Source of the DNA: Blepharisma japonicum
Lineage: Eukaryota > Ciliophora > Heterotrichea > Heterotrichida > Blepharismidae
DNA: 64,000 bases
Direction of reading: 5' to 3'
Assembly: GCA_949751835.1 (NCBI GenBank)
Contig: CATKHK010000013.1
Coordinates: 372,001 to 436,000, forward strand
The position numbers were made by a program, and so were the translations under genes. Within the stretch, counting starts at the first letter, position 1. The number at the start of each line of letters is the position of its first letter. Shown one piece after another: positions 2,044 through 18,718 of this stretch. The notes under the pieces are model-generated. The model saw nothing but the letters and a program-made list of their open reading frames with translations, made no database searches and had not been told where the DNA came from.

Positions 2044-4381
2044 TTAATAAAAGATATTTTGACAACAGTACTGGAACCTATCATAGCACCTCGTACTCCA
2101 GTTGTCTAAACTTTCGTCTATTAATAAATTGATATACTCTTTACAGTCTCCTTCTGACATTGACTCTCTAGGCAAAAGCCTTTCTCTCAGTCCTCTCGTT
2201 ACTTCTTCTCCTCCTATAAAGCATCCTAAGCTTGCCCCGCTTCCAAATCTCATCATTTCTACCAACAGAACAATCTGCTCAGCTTTTTCTTTTAATGCAA
2301 TAAATCCTTTGACGCACAGCGATCTAAATTCAATAAATAGCTTGGATCTTCTCCCTCCTAAAATTCTTTCAAATTCGTCAGTCAGCTTAAATGGGGCTTT
2401 TTCGAAGTTGATGTTCCCTCCAGGTGAGTTGCTAAACATGAAGCCAAAATCAATGTGAATTAAATGTCCATGCCTATCAATCAAAATATTACCATTATGC
2501 CTGTCTTTTATTTGTAAAATGTAGCATAGCAAGCTATATCCTGCTAAACTTTTCATGAATTCTTTTCTAGCTCTTTTCATACGCTTGGTTTTTTCTCCAC
2601 CAAACTGCATTTCGAAGAAATGATAAAGAGTTTTACTATCTGCTGGCAAATCTTTTTTTAGGCCGTCTATAGAGATAGCGTCAGGAACACATTCTAAAAT
2701 TCCACAGCCTTCTCCAGTGGCTATGATATCATATGCATAGAGTCATAAATCTAATTTTTTCTCTCTTCATGTCTGTTGGAAAAATGAAATTAACTGCATT
2801 GCTAGCTGCTCCTGGCGCAAATCATCCCCACTTTTCACTATAATGTGAAGCAGCTCCCAAGTTTTCAGTTTCCCAAACGGTGATTTTGCCCTAATTCTTT
2901 GAGCCATCTCCTTAAAACTTTCTTTGAAAATAACTCTTTTGCCATCATTAATCGATTCCTCGCCACCTGCTATATCTTCATCTTCATCCCCTCCATATAC
3001 AGCTTCTAAATCGCCAGCTGCTGGCTGCCCAAAAATGCTCAATCTTTCATAATGTAGAGAAGGCGTTGACAATGCAGGAGGCCTTGAGTGTATTGCGTCA
3101 ATAGTTTCTCTATGTTTCCTACTATTTTCTGACTCTTTTTTTATTACTTTAATAATTTCATCAAACCCATCATCTATGGTGTCATTTAAAGTTTTGACTT
3201 CTTCTATAACAGTTTTACTTAAATGAAAAGACCGAATTGATGGAACTGAAGCTGACCTTCTATCCATTGTTGATGCACTTTTTGAGGGCTCTAAAACTAG
3301 TAGTTCTTCATATGGCCGAAAAATTTCTACACATATTTTATAGGGGGCTCGCTCTTTTGTGGTAAAAACTCTGGCTTCATTAGCGATTATATGTAAAACT
3401 GCACAATTTCGAGCGATTGGAGTGTTAAATGGAATATAAGCGCATGCAGGGAGAAGTTGGTTAAGCTCTTTTAGTTCTTCTTTAAGCATTTCTGATTTTT
3501 TTGGGGTGTGGAGGATTTTTATAGAAATTTGTGTGAGTTTTTCAACGAACCATAAGGTAGAATGGTAGCCATCTACGATGTTTCCTTTAGGAAACGGGTT
3601 TAAAGGGATATATTTTGGGTTGATTTTATCAGGAATATCACTTTCTACTTTTCCAGTCAAATTATACTCACGGATCAAGTCTCTTAAAACTGCCACATCT
3701 TCTGGCTCTTCATCTAAAATATCAGAAAAACTCTTTCTTGAGCTGTCAAAATTATAATCCATTCCCATGCTTGCCATAAGTTGAAATAATTCTTTTCCTC
3801 TTCCTAGAAATATTGCTTGAGAATCTTGAGAAACTTTTTCGACACTTTCAATTAAGCTGACTAATATTTTACCTGTCAGGGTCAACGCTCGGCAAATCTA
3901 ATAAACTGAAATCAGTTGATTTTAAAAACCAGTAAACCCTATGAGAGAAATGAAAAGAATTTTTGCAAAATTCTAAAACTGCGCGAATTAATTCCTCATT
4001 TTGGTCCAAAAATCCAAAAAGTAATAAATTGCTGTATAAAAATTACCAAAGCTGGGGAACATAAAATTCTAAGTCTTCACGCCTTTTCTTTCGAAAATCT
4101 GGACTGATTTGGCATTTGACAAGGTCAGAAATAACAAGTTGGTGAGAATATAAGTTAAGGAGTGTGATATATACTTGGTCAAAATGCTTTTTCTTTGAAA
4201 GTCGATCTCGGATCTTGACCCAAAATTTTTTCCTTTCAGTTCTGATGCTGAGCTGTATAGAGTTTACTTTATTTTTGACGAAACAACAGCATAGTGTACG
4301 GAATATTGATTGAAAGCATCCTTGTTTGCGTGGCTGAGGAGGTGGGACTAATGGTTGACTTATTGACATGGATTTTGCCAT
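2044..4381 (-). CDS. PI4KB: Phosphatidylinositol 4-kinase, type III beta-like
   Basis: Likely makes PI4P on Golgi or endosomal membranes. Three exons are separated by a 15-nt intron at 4032-4046 and a 16-nt intron at 3857-3872; removing both restores one frame of 768 aa from the ATG at 4379-4381. Residues about 60-200 match the PIK helical domain (HRVYWFLKS). The kinase domain fills the last 270 residues: SGDDLRQEQLAMQLI, the catalytic loop KDRHNGNILID (about residue 615) and the metal-binding HIDFGFMFSNSPGG with the PI4K-type INFEKAPFKLTDEF downstream. In WREKKLDLWLYAYDI both Trp codons are TGA, at positions conserved in PI4Ks. The N-terminal CCCF cluster could be a lipidation or membrane-contact site. 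Human PI4KB is about 800 aa, so the length fits. The subtype call is by motif only. Confidence 0.93.
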
Positions 4382-6119: not shown

Positions 6120-6728
6120 CTAATGCTTATGCTTTTTATCCTTTTTATCCTTTTTCGAATGTCCATGCTCTCTGCATTTACAAGGCTTATTCTTTTTCTG
6201 GTTAAAACCAGTTCCAAGGCATTTTCCACAGACTCCAGCATGCTCAGCGCATTTTTTACAAGGCTTTCCTTTATTCGTTCCAGTACCATGGCATTTATGG
6301 CAGTTAGGATTTGCATGAAAAGCAGCTTGGCCATGAGGCATTCCCATTGGTGGGCCTCCATGAATAGGCATTCCCATTTGAGGAGGAATTCCTTGTGGAC
6401 CTACATGTGGAGGCATTGGCTGTCCTGGAAATCCAGGCTGAGGAGGAAAAGCTTGTGGAGGGTATCCTTGAGGTGGTGGCATATGCATCCCTGGCTGAGG
6501 AGGATATCCTTGAGGCGGTGGCATATGCATCCCTGGTTGAGGAGGATAACCTTGTGGAGGTGGAGGATAACCAGGTTGTGGAGGATAGCCTTGTGGTGGA
6601 GGATAGCCAGGCTGTGGAGGATAGCCTTGAGGAGGTGGAGGATAGCCTTGAGGAGGAGGTGGATATCCCTGTTGAGGTGGATACGCTGGGTATCCTTGAG
6701 GAGGTGGTGGACCTGGAGGATGGCTCAT
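6120..6728 (-). CDS. GYPPPQ-repeat protein with DnaJ-type cysteine module
   Basis: A 202-aa protein. Residues 1-115 are tandem Gly-Tyr-Pro-Pro-Pro-Gln units (GYPPPPQGYPPQPG), with two copies of a GMHMPPPQ variant. Residues 135-180 contain paired CxxCxGxG units (CHKCHGTG, CGKCLGTG) and CKKC/CKC pairs, the spacing seen in the zinc-binding cysteine-rich domain of DnaJ-type proteins, but there is no J domain. The C-terminus is a His/Lys tail (KKDKKDKKHKH). Similar low-complexity PGY repeats occur in membrane-associated or condensate-forming proteins; the zinc module suggests a protein-binding role. Function is not established. The stop is TAG. Confidence 0.85.
   Translation of the reverse strand: MSHPPGPPPPQGYPAYPPQQGYPPPPQGYPPPPQGYPPQPGYPPPQGYPPQPGYPPPPQGYPPQPGMHMPPPQGYPPQPGMHMPPPQGYPPQAFPPQPGFPGQPMPPHVGPQGIPPQMGMPIHGGPPMGMPHGQAAFHANPNCHKCHGTGTNKGKPCKKCAEHAGVCGKCLGTGFNQKKNKPCKCREHGHSKKDKKDKKHKH
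6400..6728 (-). repeat. Coding tandem repeat encoding GYPPPQ units
   Basis: Imperfect tandem array of 15-33 nt units inside the proline-rich gene, with the longest near-identical copies (about 57 nt, encoding PPQPGMHMPPPQGY) around 6455-6545. The repeats also create long open antisense and shifted frames that are not genes. Confidence 0.85.
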
Positions 6729-7756: not shown

Positions 7757-8380
7757 CTAAGGAAGCTCAGTAAGGTTATTTCTGTTATAAAAGTTCCAAA
7801 GTGCTTCTCTAATTGGAGTTGATAGCTCAAGCATTCGATTAAAAAGCTCCAATTGTCTTTCTAAAGAAGCATCCCCCAATAATCTTCTTCCATACTCTTC
7901 TCTATTAGGTACAGTTTTAATTCCAACTTTTGCTGCCATTCTAACAGGCCATGGATGATGAGGTCCAAAAGCTTCATCATAAGCTTCAGAAACGCATTTT
8001 GACATTTTCCAATCAAGATGTGTGCTGAAGTTAATTATAAGCTGTCTAAGAAAATCAAAAAACCACATTAATCTCAACACTGTTCTTGCTGTAGATGCAT
8101 GATGGTCGTCCTGATGAAATCTTTCAGTTCCCCTTCGAATTTCATCTAAAATCATTCCTTGCAAGCCTGTGAATTGGGAGCCCTGGAAATTATTCTTTAT
8201 TATAGCTGCTTTTGATGTTATATCTGAAAATGCCATGGACAAAGCTCTTCCTAAAAACGCAAATGAGTTTGAAAACTCAAGCATTGCATCGGCAAAGTGG
8301 AGATAGTGAATTTCATCCAGATTTACAGCTGCTAGCTCCAAATGCTCGAAGAGCTTGTTGATATCGAATTGTGATACCAT
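7757..8380 (-). CDS. Glycolipid transfer protein family (copy 1)
   Basis: A 207-aa all-helical lipid-transfer protein of the GLTP/CPTP family, expected to carry sphingolipids (glycolipid or ceramide-1-phosphate) between membranes. Start chosen at the ATG at 8378-8380 (MVSQFDINKLFEHLE); a longer version would need a non-ATG start. Family residues visible: the headgroup Asp in FSDITSKAAIIKNNF with the following Asn/Lys, the stacking Trp in VLRLMWFFDFL, and the His in HHPWPVRMAAKVG. GLTPs are about 205-215 aa, so it is full length. It lies about 180 bp downstream of a close paralogue on the same strand. The substrate cannot be told from motifs alone. The stop is TAG. Confidence 0.9.
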   Translation of the reverse strand: MVSQFDINKLFEHLELAAVNLDEIHYLHFADAMLEFSNSFAFLGRALSMAFSDITSKAAIIKNNFQGSQFTGLQGMILDEIRRGTERFHQDDHHASTARTVLRLMWFFDFLRQLIINFSTHLDWKMSKCVSEAYDEAFGPHHPWPVRMAAKVGIKTVPNREEYGRRLLGDASLERQLELFNRMLELSTPIREALWNFYNRNNLTELP

Positions 8381-8559: not shown

Positions 8560-9180
8560 TTATTTAACAATATTTGCCAGATTATTTTCGTTATAAAATC
8601 CCCAAAGAGCGTCTCTCAGTGGATCTGAAAGCTCAAGCAAATGTCTGAACAATTCCAATTGTTTTTCTACAGGAATATTCCCAAAAAGTTTGTTCATATA
8701 CTCCTGCCTACTAGGTAAAATTTTAATTCCAATTTTCGCAGCCAGCCTAAACGCCCATGGATGGTGATTTGATAATGTCTCTTTGTAAGCTATTCTCACA
8801 CATTTCGAGAGTTTCCAATGAAGCTGAGTTGTTAAATGTAACACAATCTGCCTTAAAAAATCTGAAAACCACATTAGCTTTAGCACAGTGATAGCAGTTG
8901 ATGTGTGTTTTCCTTCATTTCTAACGGTTCCGCGCTTAATTTCGTCTAAAATCATGCTTTGTAGCCCAGTGAACCTTGATCTTTTGAAATTCTTTTTCAA
9001 AGAATTAGCTTTAGTAGCGATATCAGAAAAGGCTAGTGAGACAGCTTTGCCGATGAATGAAAAAGTGTGGGTAAAGTCAATCATCAGGTCAGCAAAGTCA
9101 AGGTAATTAACATCTTCAAGATTTGCTGCTGCGCCTTCTAGATGTTCGAATAGTTTGTTAAGGTTGAATTGGCCTGACAT
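8560..9180 (-). CDS. Glycolipid transfer protein family (copy 2)
   Basis: A 206-aa paralogue of the neighbouring gene, clearly a tandem duplicate: both begin QFxxNKLFEHLE, share FTGLQxMILDEI, and end with ALWxFYNxNNL. The same family residues are present (SDIATKANSLKKNF, LKLMWFSDFLRQ, HHPWAFRLAAKIG). The copies differ most in the loop after ILDEI(R/K)RGT, where copy 1 has a His/Asp-rich insert. Divergence across the length shows the duplication is not recent, and both appear functional. Starts at the ATG at 9178-9180. Confidence 0.9.
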   Translation of the reverse strand: MSGQFNLNKLFEHLEGAAANLEDVNYLDFADLMIDFTHTFSFIGKAVSLAFSDIATKANSLKKNFKRSRFTGLQSMILDEIKRGTVRNEGKHTSTAITVLKLMWFSDFLRQIVLHLTTQLHWKLSKCVRIAYKETLSNHHPWAFRLAAKIGIKILPSRQEYMNKLFGNIPVEKQLELFRHLLELSDPLRDALWGFYNENNLANIVK

Positions 9181-9237: not shown

Positions 9238-12200
9238 TTAATAACTATTAGAAGACAGTTTTTTTCCAGCTTCTTTTTCTTCCTTCATAAGCAATTTCGC
9301 TTCCATTTCCTTTTGCTTATAATATGGCACTGAATTATCATCTAGTGAAAGTGTTGAAAATCACGTCGGTAAATCAATTTCAGCATCATATTTTCTTGCT
9401 TCTTCCATTATAAATGGGTGTATTTGTCTTAAAATTAGCGTGATTGATCTTCCAGACATATCGCAAGGTCGCACACAATGTTTCGCTGAATTAGCTGCGT
9501 AACTGAATTCCTCCATTACGCAAACCACTCCTCTTGGGCAAGGAATACAAAAAGCTCCATTTAAATACCCATAAAATTGACTTCCAAATGAAAGCCTTGC
9601 ATCACTCCCTAATTTTACAGTATAAATTGGCTGTTTAAACCTAACAGCGTCATCAAAGTGCTGTGCTAAGCCTTCTTTTCCATCATGGTAAATATTCATA
9701 GCAATTGAGTTTATAAAATTCTTTTCAATAATTCCTGAGTCCACCAATGGATCTAAAATTTCTTTTTTCATTCAATATGGGGTACCACTTACGTCTACCC
9801 TTACCCCTGCTGCTACACGAGACTGTTTTTCTGCTAATTGTGTAGCTGTCCACATATAGCGAGTCCCAAAAAAAAACTTCGTTCTTTTTATTACTCCTCC
9901 AGCACCATATGAAGGTTGAGCAGTATTAATTAAAAATTGGCCATTTCGAAAGTCTTGTTCAGTGCCTCTCGCTTTTTCTTCAAGTTTTAATAGTTCATCT
10001 TGGTTAAAAACTCCTTGGTAAGTAACAATGCCAGCCCTTACATAGTCTCCTTCAAGCCATTTTTCTCAGTCATGATAGTTTGATGGTAAATCATTTTTCC
10101 TAAAATAATATTCTTGCTTAATGATATTTCTATCATTTCATCTGATAATAGACTTTTTGACATGAAGATCATAAGAAAAGGAATCTCTGGTATTTATTAA
10201 GTAAAACCAATTAGGAGGGTTTTTGGAATCTAGGAGACTGGAAAGGCCATTTTCGTAGGTATATAAAGGTTCAGTTATGGAGGAGCTGCATTTGGGACAG
10301 AAATGAGAAATTGGGAGAATATAGGAAGATGAAGGAGATCAGGAGGATGCGGGAGTGGTGTGGAGAGGAGATAAAGGACAGCTGCATGATTTTCTTCATA
10401 AAAAAATTCCTGGCTTAGGCTCCAGTGTTTTAGTAGCAAAGTACTTTTCACGTGCTGCATTTCAATCTAAGAGAAATTGCTGAATATAAGCTTCAAATTC
10501 ATATATAAATGAGCATAAGAGTTTTCTGGCATGTGGTGTTGCAATTTTTCACGCTAATTTTTGCAGGTATAGCTCAAGCCGAATTTGTGTTGCATAAATG
10601 TTTAAAGGATCAGTTTCAAGCTCGTCAAGCCCTAGACATTTTTTAACAGATTTCATACCACAGAGTCCTTTTTTCACCAAAAATCCAATCATCACATCTC
10701 CTTTATTACCTGGGAGAGCAGGAGCTAGTAGCGATTTTTCATCCATTTGCAAATGAATAACCACGAAATTATCTTTTCCCAATATTCTCCACATCATTTT
10801 TATATTTTCAACTAAAAGCTCATCTCCATCTTCCATTTCACCTAAGACATATTTTTTTAAGTCTGCTTCTCCATAATTTTTTTGTATTGTCACCCTTACT
10901 ACTCCTTGATTTTCAAAAAGATTTTTTATTAATTCACGAGACATAGTCAAATACATTTCTCTTTCGTCAGAAGGGATTATCCTATCTACTGTGCCTACTT
11001 GAAAAGCAAGAGGGGGTAGAGGCGCAAATTGATCAGAAACTCCTGCTTGTGTGCTTTCGGTTGGAAGAACATAGGTCACTCCACAGCTTCTCTTGATATT
11101 GGCTGCTGATTGTTTTTTGCGGATAAAATGAGCTTTGGTTTCTTTTTCGGGTTTTTGGGGATTTTCTTGGTTTAAAAGGTCTTCTTGGATTTTATGGCTT
11201 TCTTGCATTTCTATTGGAAGATAACGACTGATGAAATTTGTACGGTAGCCAAGATCTGTAGGATTTTTGCTGCGAAATTCGGGTGTCATGGGATTAGAGA
11301 TTTTAATTTCTTCAGACTTTTTAGGTCTTTTAAGAGTTTCAATTTTTGGGCTTTCGTCTTTAGACACTGACTCTTTTTGATTAATTTTATTTTTGATCTC
11401 ATGTGCTATTTTCTCTTCCAACTTCTCTTTGTTATTTTCTTTTTTAGCTTTACTTTTCTTTAGTTTTATTTTTTCTTCTTTTACCTCAATCTTTTGTATA
11501 ATAAAAATAGGAGATTCATTTGCTGCATTTATATCAGGAAGATCTTCATAATTCACAACTTTTCTCTTTTTAAGCAGAACTTCTTCTTCGCACTCATCTT
11601 CGCTTACCCTTATTTGTGGTTTTTCTTCAATCTTACTTTCATCTTGATTACTTTCTTTAATAAAAATATTTTGCCGCAATGCTTTTTCAGATTCTTCTTG
11701 CTCTATAATTTGTGCAGCTCCCTTAATTAGATCTTCGACAGTGTCAACAACTTCTTGAGAGATGATTTCAGTAGATTCTTCATGATTTGTATCACTAGTG
11801 ACCGCACTTTCAATTTCATTAGAAAATGACTCTTGCTTATCTATATGGTGTTTGGGGATAAAGTCTTTTAATATTGTCACGATGATTTCGGTATCTATGC
11901 AGCCTACTGTGACCGGACCTTTTTCATAAATCCATTTCTCGAAGTCAGACAAATATTTTTTATATAAGGCTTTTAAAGCACGTCTGAATTCCCGACATGA
12001 ATTGGTAGGACTCAGAACTTTTCCAACTGCTTGCCAACTAAGTCTTCCGAAGTGCTTTCTTACTTTCAATATACAATGAAAAAGGTCATATATGTCATAA
12101 TTGGAATCTGGAATTAATTGTAAACTGAACTTTGATGCCTTATATTCTTCGAGAAATCACTGCAAAAGAGCTAAAAAATTTTCTTTTGGGCTACTAAAAT

Positions 12201-12393
12201 GTAGGCTTGGATTCCTTTTGCTCATAAGCATTGGTGAATTGCAGCCACAAATGCATGGAGTGCATGTTTTGGGGCTTGTTTTATTTGATGCTTGATCATT
12301 TAAAGAATGGTGTGATGGATCTAATTTTCCAGTGGAAAATTCAACTTGTTCTGAAAGGTTTATAATTAAACTCTCCTTAGAAAAAGGCTTCAT
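9238..12393 (-). CDS. ARID-domain / AlkB-type 2OG-Fe(II) dioxygenase fusion
   Basis: One intronless frame of 1051 aa from the ATG at 12391-12393 to TAA at 9238, with several TGA Trp codons, so it is easily mistaken for three genes. Residues about 74-160 fit the ARID/BRIGHT DNA-binding fold (YDIYDLFH, GRLSWQAVGKVL, ALKALYKKYLSDFEKW). Residues 160-400 are charged and disordered (Lys/Glu-rich). Residues about 620-650 hold CPKC and other cysteines. The C-terminal third is an AlkB-family oxygenase: NIYHDGKEGLAQHFDD supplies the iron ligands His (about 912) and Asp (about 914), EEFSYAANSAKHCVRP the third His (about 972), and DMSGRSITLILRQIH the 2-oxoglutarate-binding Arg region. The pattern is nearest the ALKBH5/plant ALKBH9-10 type that demethylates m6A RNA. 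Targeting by the ARID domain is an inference. Confidence 0.85.
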
Positions 12394-16429: not shown

Positions 16430-18718
16430 ATGGCAAGAAGAATTGATCTTGTAACTAATTTCTTTGAACTTGAGCAGCCATTATCTGCGACCATAAAATT
16501 TTATGCTTTAGACTTTTCTCCTCCTGTAGACCCTTCTAATCGACAATTGCAAAGGTTCTTAATTTCCAAGAAAAGAGACGAAATTGAATCCCAAATTGGA
16601 CGTTTTATACAACTAGGCCAAACTCTTGCATCAGCTCAAAATGATCCTGTTTTAAACCCAATATTTTTTGAGTCTAAAGGTTTTGATGATCTTATATATA
16701 TTATTACTGTCTCACTTTCTCGTGATATTGGAGAAGAAGGTATTATTATGCAGAAAATGTATGCGAATGGGATTTTGAAAAGAATGCTCTTTGATTTAGG
16801 AATGAGGCAGGTGACCAAATTGCCTAAATTTTATAATCCTCAAAATAGAGTTGAATTAAGAAGATATAGACTAGAGATATGGAAAGGTAATACAGCTTCA
16901 TTTGCCCACCATATGGATAGATGTTTACTAAACATAGATTTTGCAAGTAAAATAGTTAATACTGATACAGTTTTGCAAGCACTGAATAACTTTCAAAAAG
17001 GGAATAAGCGAAGGGAGTTTATTGAATCTGAATTAATTGGAAAAATCGTGATGGCTAGATATGGAAATTTTAGATGCTATAGAATAGAAGGAATTTGCTT
17101 CGATGAAAATCCAACAAACACTTTTAATTGGAAAGGAAAAGAAATATCTTATGTGGATTATTATGCAAGGTTTAATCGAACAATTCGTGATCTTCGTCAA
17201 CCATTAATTAAATCTACTATAGAAAGAGGGCAGAAAGAAATAAAATTGATACCTGAATTATGCTATATCACTGGAATTCCTGACGATATGAAAAATTCAA
17301 GAGACATTGCCGAGCACACAAGATTAAGACCAAACGATCGATTTGATAACTGCATGGCTTTGGCACAAAAGTTAATTGAAAAATCTCGAGAAATGCGAGA
17401 AACAAACTTAAATATAAGAGCCAGACCTATTGAAATTAGAGCACAAAGACTAGATTGCGGAAGTATTTTAAATTCTGATGATCACTCGTCTAATACACCA
17501 ATATCTGAAAATGGCTCTTTTAATATTAGAAACTCTCTGCGCTATGCAAATATAATAAAATCTTGAATTATTCTACAAGTTTCCAGAGACAATGAAGACC
17601 CGGAAAAAGCTCGAAACCGTAGACGTCTTGCCGACCAGTTTAAAGAGAGTTTTAGAGGGGAGCGAAAGAATTTAGGATTAAAAATCGCAAATGCTCCTAA
17701 AGTCGAGCCACGCAAAGAATCATCAATTGTTGAGACTATTAGTAAATTAAAAGAGATAGAAATTAATGGGTCAACTCCTCAAATTTGTATTGTGCTGCTA
17801 CCAGAAGAATGCAAAGGATTATATAACATAATAAAAGAAAAATCATGCCTTAATTCAGGAGTGCCAATACAAGTAGTTATGGAAAATACCATCAGTGACA
17901 GTCGAAAATTCAAATCAGCCCTTCAAAAAATCATGCTTCAAATTGCTGCAAAAACTGGATCATATTTATGATCCTTATCAAATTTTAATGAAATGCCAAG
18001 CAGAACCATGGTAATAGGAATTGACGTTTTCCATGATACCGTGAGCAAAGCTCAAAGTATCCTTGGATTTGTCGCTTCACTTAATGAGGAGTTTACTCAA
18101 TATTTCAATACAATTAAAAAGCAAGACCACATTGGCCAAGAAATTGCAGGCTCTGTATCAGTGTGTTTTAATGAAGCAATTAATTCCTATAAAGAAAACT
18201 CGGGCCATTATCCTGAAATGATAATCATATATAGAGATGGAGTTTCTGACTCACAAATTGACGCTGTTAGAAGTTATGAGATTGAAGGGATAAAGATGGC
18301 TATTGCTTCTAAAGAAGGGTGAGCTCCTGGACTTGTGTATATTGTTATTAATAAGAAAACCAATTGCAAACTTTATAGACGAGATGGTAGTGGTAATATT
18401 GTCAATCCACTGAATGGCACATATGTAGAAACTGTTGTGGTTCCAGACAGTAAGAGTTTTTATTTGATATCTCATAATGTTAATCAAGGTGTGGCCACCC
18501 CTATTCTTTATAGAGTTATTCAAGACAACACAGATCGCGAAGATATTATTACTTATGCTAGGCTGGCTTATAAGTTGTGCTTTTTATATTACAATTGGAC
18601 AGGAGCCATCAAAATCCCTGCACCTACTATGATGGCTCATAAGCTAGCTTATATAGTCGGTCAAAGTGTGCATGATGACTATCTTCCTGATCTCAAGAAA
18701 ATTCCTTGGTTTTATTAA
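16430..18718 (+). CDS. PIWI: Piwi-clade Argonaute protein
   Basis: A 762-aa Argonaute/Piwi protein in one intronless frame with three TGA Trp codons (IIKSWIILQ, SYLWSLSNF, KEGWAPGLV). Order: N-terminal domain, PAZ (about 160-260), MID (about 395-510, including ICIVLLPEECKGLYNIIKE) and PIWI (520-762). The slicer residues are present: Asp532 in MVIGIDVFHD, Asp603 in IIIYRDGVSD, and His737 in KIPAPTMMAHKLAY, so cleavage activity is expected. The C-terminus ends in hydrophobic WFY, as Argonautes require. YRDGVSDSQ and SKSFYLISHNVNQGVATP are Piwi-type. In ciliates Piwi proteins carry scan RNAs that guide genome rearrangement, or other small RNAs in vegetative cells; which applies here cannot be told. 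Confidence 0.96.

What the first reader, a model, noticed from the sequence alone, without database searches (positions are those of the whole stretch)
9238..12393. ARID DNA-binding domain fused to an AlkB/ALKBH5-type dioxygenase
One 1051-aa frame starts with ARID-like sequence and ends with a complete HxD...H...R 2-oxoglutarate oxygenase closest in pattern to m6A demethylases. I know of no described protein with this pairing. An ARID domain would bring a nucleic-acid demethylase to AT-rich chromatin, relevant in ciliates that carry abundant DNA 6mA. The standard code splits it into several fragments, so it would be overlooked.
Basis: partly seen in the sequence, partly recalled or inferred. 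Interest (0 to 1): 0.8.

Follow-up and report, generated by a model that had tools for sequence, protein, structure and literature searches.

The report
ARID–ALKBH5 fusion gene in a ciliate
A ciliate gene, present in two diverged copies, joins a chromatin-type DNA-binding domain to a relative of the enzyme that removes methyl marks from adenine, which points to a demethylase parked on DNA, although one key cofactor-binding residue is changed in both copies.

Summary
On the minus strand (12393 to 9238) one 1051-codon frame is open when TGA is read as tryptophan. It carries a divergent ARID domain (residues 70-152), a Lys/Glu-rich linker, a conserved middle region without a match, a CxC…CPxC cluster, and an ALKBH5-like 2-oxoglutarate oxygenase domain (about 761-990). 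A second copy in the same, Blepharisma-like genome has the same architecture end to end (70% identity; dN/dS 0.16 overall, 0.05 in the oxygenase), so it is one gene, not two. ALKBH5 is the only AlkB protein that the domain hits in the PDB. One correction: iron ligands and the distal Arg are kept, but the 2OG-binding Arg (R277 of ALKBH5) aligns with Ser in both copies, with an Arg one residue earlier. The genome also encodes an AMT1/MTA1-type methyltransferase and YTH proteins; one family search showed no further ALKBH5- or ALKBH1-like protein. Best reading: a chromatin-tethered N6-methyladenine eraser. DNA or RNA as substrate, and activity itself, are unproven. ARID with a 2OG oxygenase is known in KDM5 (JmjC); I found no report of ARID with AlkB in a limited literature search.

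The parts
9238..12393 (-). Whole gene: 1051-aa frame with TGA=W, ATG at 12393, stop TAA 9238-9240
   Evidence: second copy G000:C18 (L012:1141-4404 +, 1087 aa) aligns end to end, 70% identity; dN/dS 0.16; no GTA...TAG candidate intron of 15/16 nt (other intron forms not tested)
12241..12264 (-). N-terminal Cys motif, residues 44-51 (C47, C49, C51 shared by both copies), function unknown
   Evidence: alignment
11938..12186 (-). ARID domain, residues 70-152 (divergent)
   Evidence: Pfam PF01388 26.6 bits in fragment, 27.4 in second copy, cut-off 24.1; 28.1 bits in genome search; 20.7 in the whole window protein; hhalign to four ARIDs P=1.4e-5 over 82 columns, control region P=0.52
11299..11853 (-). 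Low-complexity Lys/Glu-rich linker, residues 181-365, 45% identity and most of the indels between the copies
10444..11298 (-). Conserved middle region, residues 366-650, no family match
   Evidence: 75-78% identity, dN/dS 0.07-0.11; no Pfam, NCBIfam or significant PDB match; single-sequence fold of 441-760 uninformative, pLDDT 35
10288..10386 (-). Putative zinc-binding cluster, residues 670-702 (CxC ... HxCPxC; C670, C672, C699, C702 invariant)
   Evidence: alignment; zinc binding is inference
9424..10113 (-). ALKBH5-like Fe(II)/2OG oxygenase domain, residues 761-990
   Evidence: ALKBH5 chains E=1.8e-18 to 2.8e-17; profile of both copies hits ALKBH5 only, E=4.3e-19 to 1.8e-18, next hit (unrelated) E=0.84; dN/dS 0.05 over 781-1010
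9652..9660 (-). Fe(II) ligands H912-x-D914 (H204/D206 of ALKBH5)
9478..9480 (-). Fe(II) ligand H972 (H266 of ALKBH5)
9445..9450 (-). R982-S983: Ser at the position of the 2OG C5-carboxylate Arg (R277 of ALKBH5), Arg one residue earlier; same in both copies
   Evidence: searches (MAFFT and BLAST; HMMER) agree, without a gap; role of Arg277 from PMC3985658 passages
9427..9429 (-). R989 (R283 of ALKBH5), conserved

Best explanation
A single gene of a Blepharisma-like ciliate encodes a protein in which an ARID domain holds the protein on DNA while a C-terminal ALKBH5-type Fe(II)/2OG oxygenase oxidatively removes the methyl group of N6-methyladenine. I think it slightly more likely that it acts on DNA 6mA, perhaps on unpaired DNA near its binding site, than on RNA alone, opposing the AMT1-type writer of the same genome. 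Shown: one frame, both domains, a conserved second copy, purifying selection, writer and reader homologues. Inferred: DNA binding by this ARID, nuclear location, catalytic activity, the substrate, and that R982 (or another basic residue such as K927) does the job of the missing 2OG-binding arginine.
For: Second copy with the same architecture, 70% identity over the whole length and dN/dS 0.05 in the oxygenase. ALKBH5 is the only AlkB protein hit by the domain in the PDB. H912, D914, H972, R837 (=R130), K839 (=K132), Y846 (=Y139), N900 (=N193), Y902 (=Y195) and R989 (=R283) are kept (ALKBH5 numbers recalled, in accord with the residue names in PMC3985658). ARID passes Pfam's cut-off in isolation and in the copy, with hhalign P=1.4e-5 against 0.52 for the control region. 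The genome has an MT-A70 protein that matches PDB chains 7f4l/7yi8 at E=8.1e-84 and 2.5e-83 (recalled to be Tetrahymena MTA1/AMT1) and three YTH loci. The 5 scored PF13532 matches at E<=1 are this pair, two ALKBH8-like and one ALKBH6-like (C73 and C30 named by PDB search; C36 by my reading of its RRM-AlkB-methyltransferase order, not tested further), so no ALKBH1 was seen. C230 of ALKBH5, half of the disulfide that apparently constrains its substrate loop, is S938 here (disulfide from PMC3985658 passages).
Against: The 2OG C5-carboxylate Arg is Ser in both copies, so activity may be lost or altered. Human ALKBH5 is an RNA m6A demethylase, and the MT-A70/YTH set fits RNA as well. The ARID is divergent: 20.7 bits in the whole window protein, below the cut-off; the two-copy profile finds ARID chains in the PDB only at E=0.68 and 0.71, below unrelated chains at 0.22; the fold prediction was poor and its search had no significant match. 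PF13532 scores are below its cut-off. Absence of ALKBH1 rests on one Pfam family in a six-frame search without introns, whose counts are lower bounds. No expression, localisation or methylation data.
Confidence: 0.4

Rival explanations
1. A co-transcriptional RNA m6A eraser: the ARID tethers the enzyme to chromatin of active genes and the ALKBH5-like domain demethylates nascent RNA, as ALKBH5 acts on RNA in animals.
For: The domain's only AlkB match in the PDB is the RNA demethylase ALKBH5; R130, K132 and Y139 equivalents kept; METTL3-like protein with a ZZ-finger match and three YTH loci in the genome; ALKBH5 is listed among conserved germline factors in the Oxytricha macronuclear-development dataset (PMC5312943 passages).
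Against: A fused DNA-binding domain is not needed for RNA work; the disulfide partner C230 of ALKBH5 is missing. Neither is strong.
Confidence: 0.28
2. A catalytically weak or dead oxygenase fold kept as a reader, scaffold or sensor: it binds N6-methyladenine or iron but does not turn over, the ARID giving the address.
For: Ser at the 2OG-binding Arg in both copies, while the three other AlkB proteins found in the genome keep Arg there.
Against: Fe ligands and distal Arg are invariant and dN/dS in the domain is 0.05; R982 lies one residue away.
Confidence: 0.24
3. Two genes, or an artefact of reading through stops: an ARID gene followed by an AlkB gene that merely share a frame.
For: The standard code cuts the frame at 9 TGA; the stretch 651-720 is only 44% conserved.
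Against: The second copy is one open frame of 1087 aa with only 3 TGA; 7 of 14 shared Trp positions swap TGA and TGG; 721-780, just before the oxygenase, is 83% identical with dN/dS 0.06; telomere repeat and TGA use match Blepharisma.
Confidence: 0.03

Closest known systems
ALKBH5 (AlkB homologue 5, RNA m6A demethylase)
   Same: Only AlkB protein hit in the PDB; 67 of 214 columns identical in BLAST; Fe ligands, R130, K132, Y139, N193, Y195, R283 equivalents kept
   Different: R277 is Ser, C227 and C230 are Ser, Y141 is Trp; fused to ARID, middle region and Cys cluster; 1051 aa
KDM5/JARID1 histone demethylases (ARID + JmjC)
   Same: ARID and an Fe(II)/2OG oxygenase on one chain, acting on chromatin (architecture recalled; KDM5A and JARID1 ARID chains appear)
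   Different: The oxygenase is AlkB/ALKBH5-type, not JmjC; no JmjN, JmjC or PHD match
ARID domain proteins (Dead ringer, ARID2, ARID3A)
   Same: 82-column profile match that includes the conserved Trp before helix 4 and the C-terminal Y..YL..FE helix
   Different: Divergent; the GG is not kept and four residues before the Trp are missing
AMT1/MTA1-type MT-A70 writer
   Same: Homologue in this genome, E=8.1e-84 to PDB 7f4l; it may write the mark that the fusion removes
   Different: Writer, not eraser; not part of this gene

Membership tests
ALKBH5 subfamily of AlkB oxygenases | Sequence similarity closer to ALKBH5 than to other AlkB proteins | tested here: met
   ALKBH5 only among PDB chains; next PDB hit E=0.84, unrelated. 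No tree was built
ALKBH5 subfamily of AlkB oxygenases | HxD...H iron triad | tested here: met
   H912, D914, H972
ALKBH5 subfamily of AlkB oxygenases | Arg of strand beta-VIII that binds 2OG (R277), R-x5-R spacing | tested here: not met
   S983 in both copies; R982 one residue earlier
ALKBH5 subfamily of AlkB oxygenases | C230-C267 disulfide | tested here: not met
   S938 and C973
ALKBH5 subfamily of AlkB oxygenases | m6A demethylation | not testable with these tools
   Needs an assay
AlkB superfamily (Pfam PF13532) | Score over the curated cut-off | tested here: not met
   16.5 and 20.7 bits against 31.2, although the ALKBH5 match is clear
ARID (PF01388) | Score over the curated cut-off | tested here: met
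   26.6 (fragment) and 27.4 bits (second copy), cut-off 24.1; but 20.7 in the whole window protein
ARID (PF01388) | Helical ARID fold | tested here: inconclusive
   Single-sequence model pLDDT 51, helices only, no significant Foldseek match
ARID (PF01388) | DNA binding | not testable with these tools
   Needs an assay
KDM5/JARID1 | JmjN and JmjC domains | tested here: not met
   Pfam at E<=10 lists ARID and 2OG-FeII_Oxy_2 only

The most novel reading that the evidence does not exclude
A dedicated DNA 6mA eraser of ciliates: an ARID-addressed ALKBH5-type oxygenase, with a rebuilt 2OG pocket (Arg of strand VIII lost, R982 or K927 in its place) and without the disulfide that constrains ALKBH5, removing AMT1-written 6mA at AT-rich sites of the macronucleus or during its development.
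Probability: 0.2. Interest if true: 0.85.

Novelty: new variant of a known kind. Interest (0 to 1): 0.62.

Why it matters
6mA is written by AMT1-type enzymes in ciliates. The main texts of two recent 6mA papers that I searched by term, PMC12695648 and PMC11760949, do not hold words beginning with demethylase or eraser, so whether ciliates remove 6mA actively looks open from what I saw. A gene that fuses a DNA-binding domain to an ALKBH5-type oxygenase, kept in two copies under strong selection, gives a concrete candidate. It is also a pairing of ARID with a 2OG oxygenase parallel to KDM5, with a nucleic-acid enzyme in place of a histone enzyme, and it tests whether an AlkB fold can work with its 2OG-binding Arg displaced.

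Tried and rejected
Codes 6 and 10 were tried first: table 6 leaves the TGAs as stops (one search was the + strand, which is not the gene); table 10 opens the frame with Cys, but at 6 of the 9 TGA positions the second copy has TGG, at 2 TGA, at 1 GGT. Relatives in viral contigs (query: two-copy alignment of the oxygenase; 12 pattern matches) and in prokaryote genome contigs (query: whole protein; 107 pattern matches): none confirmed, as expected for a ciliate gene; no other ciliate genome could be searched. PHROGs gave only a weak AlkB-type hit (E=0.21). NCBIfam: none. Middle region: archaellin at E=0.27, judged chance. Structure predictions from single sequences failed (ARID pLDDT 51, middle 35), and the one fold search, with the ARID model, had nothing significant. 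Repeats inside the gene look like two-copy chance matches. Considered and put low: K927 as an FIH/JmjC-like Lys of strand IV. Its distance to the end of the strand does not fit what I recall of FIH and KDM4, and the PMC3985658 passage does not list the ALKBH5 residue there as pocket lining.

Papers. Listings with titles and starts of abstracts only: searches (326 papers, 20 listed; 19 of 19; 25, 20 listed; 7 of 7; 698, 15 listed; 4, 3 listed; 10 of 10; 1,921, 12 listed; 32, 12 listed), 100 (none). Passages by term: PMC9942806, PMC5312943, PMC9778586, PMC11779730, PMC3475032, PMC11760949 (one search gave only a heading), PMC3985658. PMC12695648 held none of the six terms. Salvini 1986 on DNA methylation in Blepharisma japonicum was seen as a title in a reference list only.

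Full report
What is there. The finding's coordinates hold a minus-strand frame: ATG at 12393, TAA at 9240-9238, 1051 codons, interrupted under the standard code by 9 TGA and by no TAA or TAG. With TAA and TAG as the only stops it is the longest frame in the window (1086 codons between stops), and the longest such frame in any of 100 simulated first-order Markov windows was 276 codons. No 15- or 16-nt stretch of the form GTA…TAG lies in it (other intron forms were not tested), which matters because Blepharisma stoltei has mainly 15- and 16-bp introns (PMC9942806 passages).

Which organism. The window is a part of G000:C13, in a genome of 45.2 Mb in 224 contigs. The pattern of three CCCTAACA units has 77 forward and 91 reverse (overlapping) matches, none for the reversed control; the forward places listed lie within the first 421 bases of a contig, and the places listed on C4 reach to 4 bases from its end (the other contigs with reverse places were not checked). 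The start of C13 itself shows no such repeat. PMC9942806 (passages) gives the same repeat, an AT-rich genome of 41 Mb and UGA=Trp for Blepharisma stoltei. I therefore read G000 as Blepharisma or a near relative; the species is inference.

The second copy. A search of the own genome with the protein finds, apart from itself, one other gene, in two pieces at G000:C18:411640-414891. It is a single frame of 1087 aa with 3 TGA and aligns from Met to the last Tyr at 70% identity. Of 15 aligned positions with Trp in at least one copy, 14 have Trp in both: 7 swap TGA with TGG, 2 have TGA in both, 5 TGG in both; at the other, TGA79, the copy has a Gly codon. This is direct evidence for TGA=Trp. Nei-Gojobori dN/dS is 0.16 overall, 0.22 in the ARID, 0.11 in 441-650, 0.06 in 721-780, 0.05 in 781-1010 and 0.19 across the junction 640-790; the weakest stretches are the N-terminus (0.45), the Cys-rich 651-720 (0.37), the C-terminus 1011-1051 (0.30) and the linker (0.29). 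dS is about 0.7 to 2.2 and in one short stretch (160-180) saturated, so single values are rough. The region between the two domains is thus coding and selected in one frame, which speaks against two separate genes more firmly than any single frame could. A gene downstream of the C18 copy is 89% identical to window 2044-3777(-), so the pair most likely comes from a duplicated block.

The ARID domain. Pfam gives PF01388 at 70-152: 20.7 bits in the full window protein, under the cut-off of 24.1; 26.6 in a 103-aa fragment and 27.4 in the whole second copy; 28.1 and 32.9 in the genome search. hhalign of the two-copy alignment against four ARIDs (three chains from the PDB and the C40 ARID of this genome) gives P=1.4e-5 over 82 columns; the same test with the middle region gives 0.52. 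Against it: the two-copy profile finds Dead ringer in the PDB only at E=0.68 and 0.71, below unrelated chains at 0.22; four residues before the conserved Trp are missing; the single-sequence model is poor (pLDDT 51, helices only), and the Foldseek search has an ARID only at rank 4, E=8.9. I take it as a true but divergent ARID (about 0.85).

The oxygenase. Five ALKBH5 chain sequences match at E=1.8e-18 to 2.8e-17 and the two-copy profile hits ALKBH5 only (five sequences, 4.3e-19 to 1.8e-18; next, unrelated, 0.84). The aligned residues, numbered by recalled human ALKBH5 positions anchored on H204, are: R130=R837, K132=K839, Y139=Y846, Y141=W848, N193=N900, Y195=Y902, H204=H912, D206=D914, C227=S935, C230=S938, H266=H972, C267=C973, R276=R982, R277=S983, R283=R989. 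PMC3985658 (passages) names Arg277 as required for 2OG binding and the Cys230-Cys267 disulfide as an apparent constraint on a loop that binds substrate in other 2OG oxygenases. HMMER, BLAST and MAFFT place Ser at 277 without a gap (the copy's residue is the same Ser), while the two ALKBH8-like proteins and the ALKBH6-like protein of the same genome have Arg there.

Setting in the genome. AlkB family matches at E<=1, all 5 candidates scored: C73 (ALKBH8-like, 3thp E=7.5e-41), C36 (RRM-AlkB-methyltransferase order by my reading), C30 (ALKBH6-like, 7vjs E=2.5e-29), and the two fusions. MT-A70: 2 loci, one like the enzyme of 7f4l/7yi8 (E=8.1e-84; that this is Tetrahymena MTA1/AMT1 is recalled, the entries say MT-a70 family protein and the set includes MTA9), one METTL3-like with a ZZ-finger match. 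YTH: 3 loci. ARID: 3 loci, the third (C40) a classical ARID. These searches are six-frame, without introns, and lower bounds. Neighbours in the window are two tandem GLTP-like genes (Pfam tested for one; the other by resemblance), a GH31 glucosidase and a Piwi gene.

How it most likely works. The ARID brings the protein to DNA and the ALKBH5-type domain removes the methyl of N6-methyladenine. I put DNA slightly before RNA because of the fused DNA-binding domain, the AMT1-type writer, the unseen ALKBH1 and the lost C230; ALKBH5's known activity argues for RNA. The lost 2OG Arg leaves a real chance that it is a non-catalytic reader. An ALKBH5 homologue is in the Oxytricha macronuclear-development dataset (PMC5312943 passages), which makes conjugation the time to look.

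Novelty. ARID with a 2OG oxygenase is known from KDM5, with JmjC (recalled; KDM5 and other JmjC papers are in the listing). In the titles and abstract starts that I saw for none points to ARID with AlkB; of those papers I opened two (PMC11779730, PMC3475032), where ARID means a dry climate, a plant promoter element or JARID1. One search (ciliate and ARID domain) found no paper. Subscription journals, preprints and databases of domain architectures were not available, so the claim is only that I did not find it. I rate it a new variant of a known kind.

Noticed in passing
window 9445-9450 and L012 (second copy): The 2OG C5-carboxylate Arg of AlkB enzymes is Ser in both fusion copies, with Arg one residue earlier, while the other three AlkB proteins found in the genome keep it.
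   Followed up: partly
window 16430-18718 (+): Piwi protein gene (PAZ and Piwi domains), about 4 kb from the fusion gene.
   Followed up: no
window 7757-8380 (-) and 8560-9180 (-): Two tandem glycolipid-transfer-protein-like genes directly downstream of the fusion; no such ORF is listed between the C18 copy and its next gene.
   Followed up: partly
window 2044-3777 (-) and L029:1116-2843 (+): A gene of about 575 aa, 89% identical between the two blocks: the fusion pair seems to belong to a duplicated segment.
   Followed up: partly
L024:1141-2505 (-), G000:C15: METTL3-like MT-A70 protein with a ZZ-type finger match at its end and more Cys-rich sequence in a neighbouring frame; a tiny intron may join them.
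   Followed up: partly
L023:1357-2004 (+), G000:C104: MT-A70 protein very close to the enzyme of PDB 7f4l/7yi8, recalled to be the Tetrahymena MTA1/AMT1 DNA-6mA methyltransferase.
   Followed up: partly
window 6120-6728 (-): 202-aa Pro/Gly/Tyr-rich repeat protein with a Cys-rich C-terminal part.
   Followed up: no
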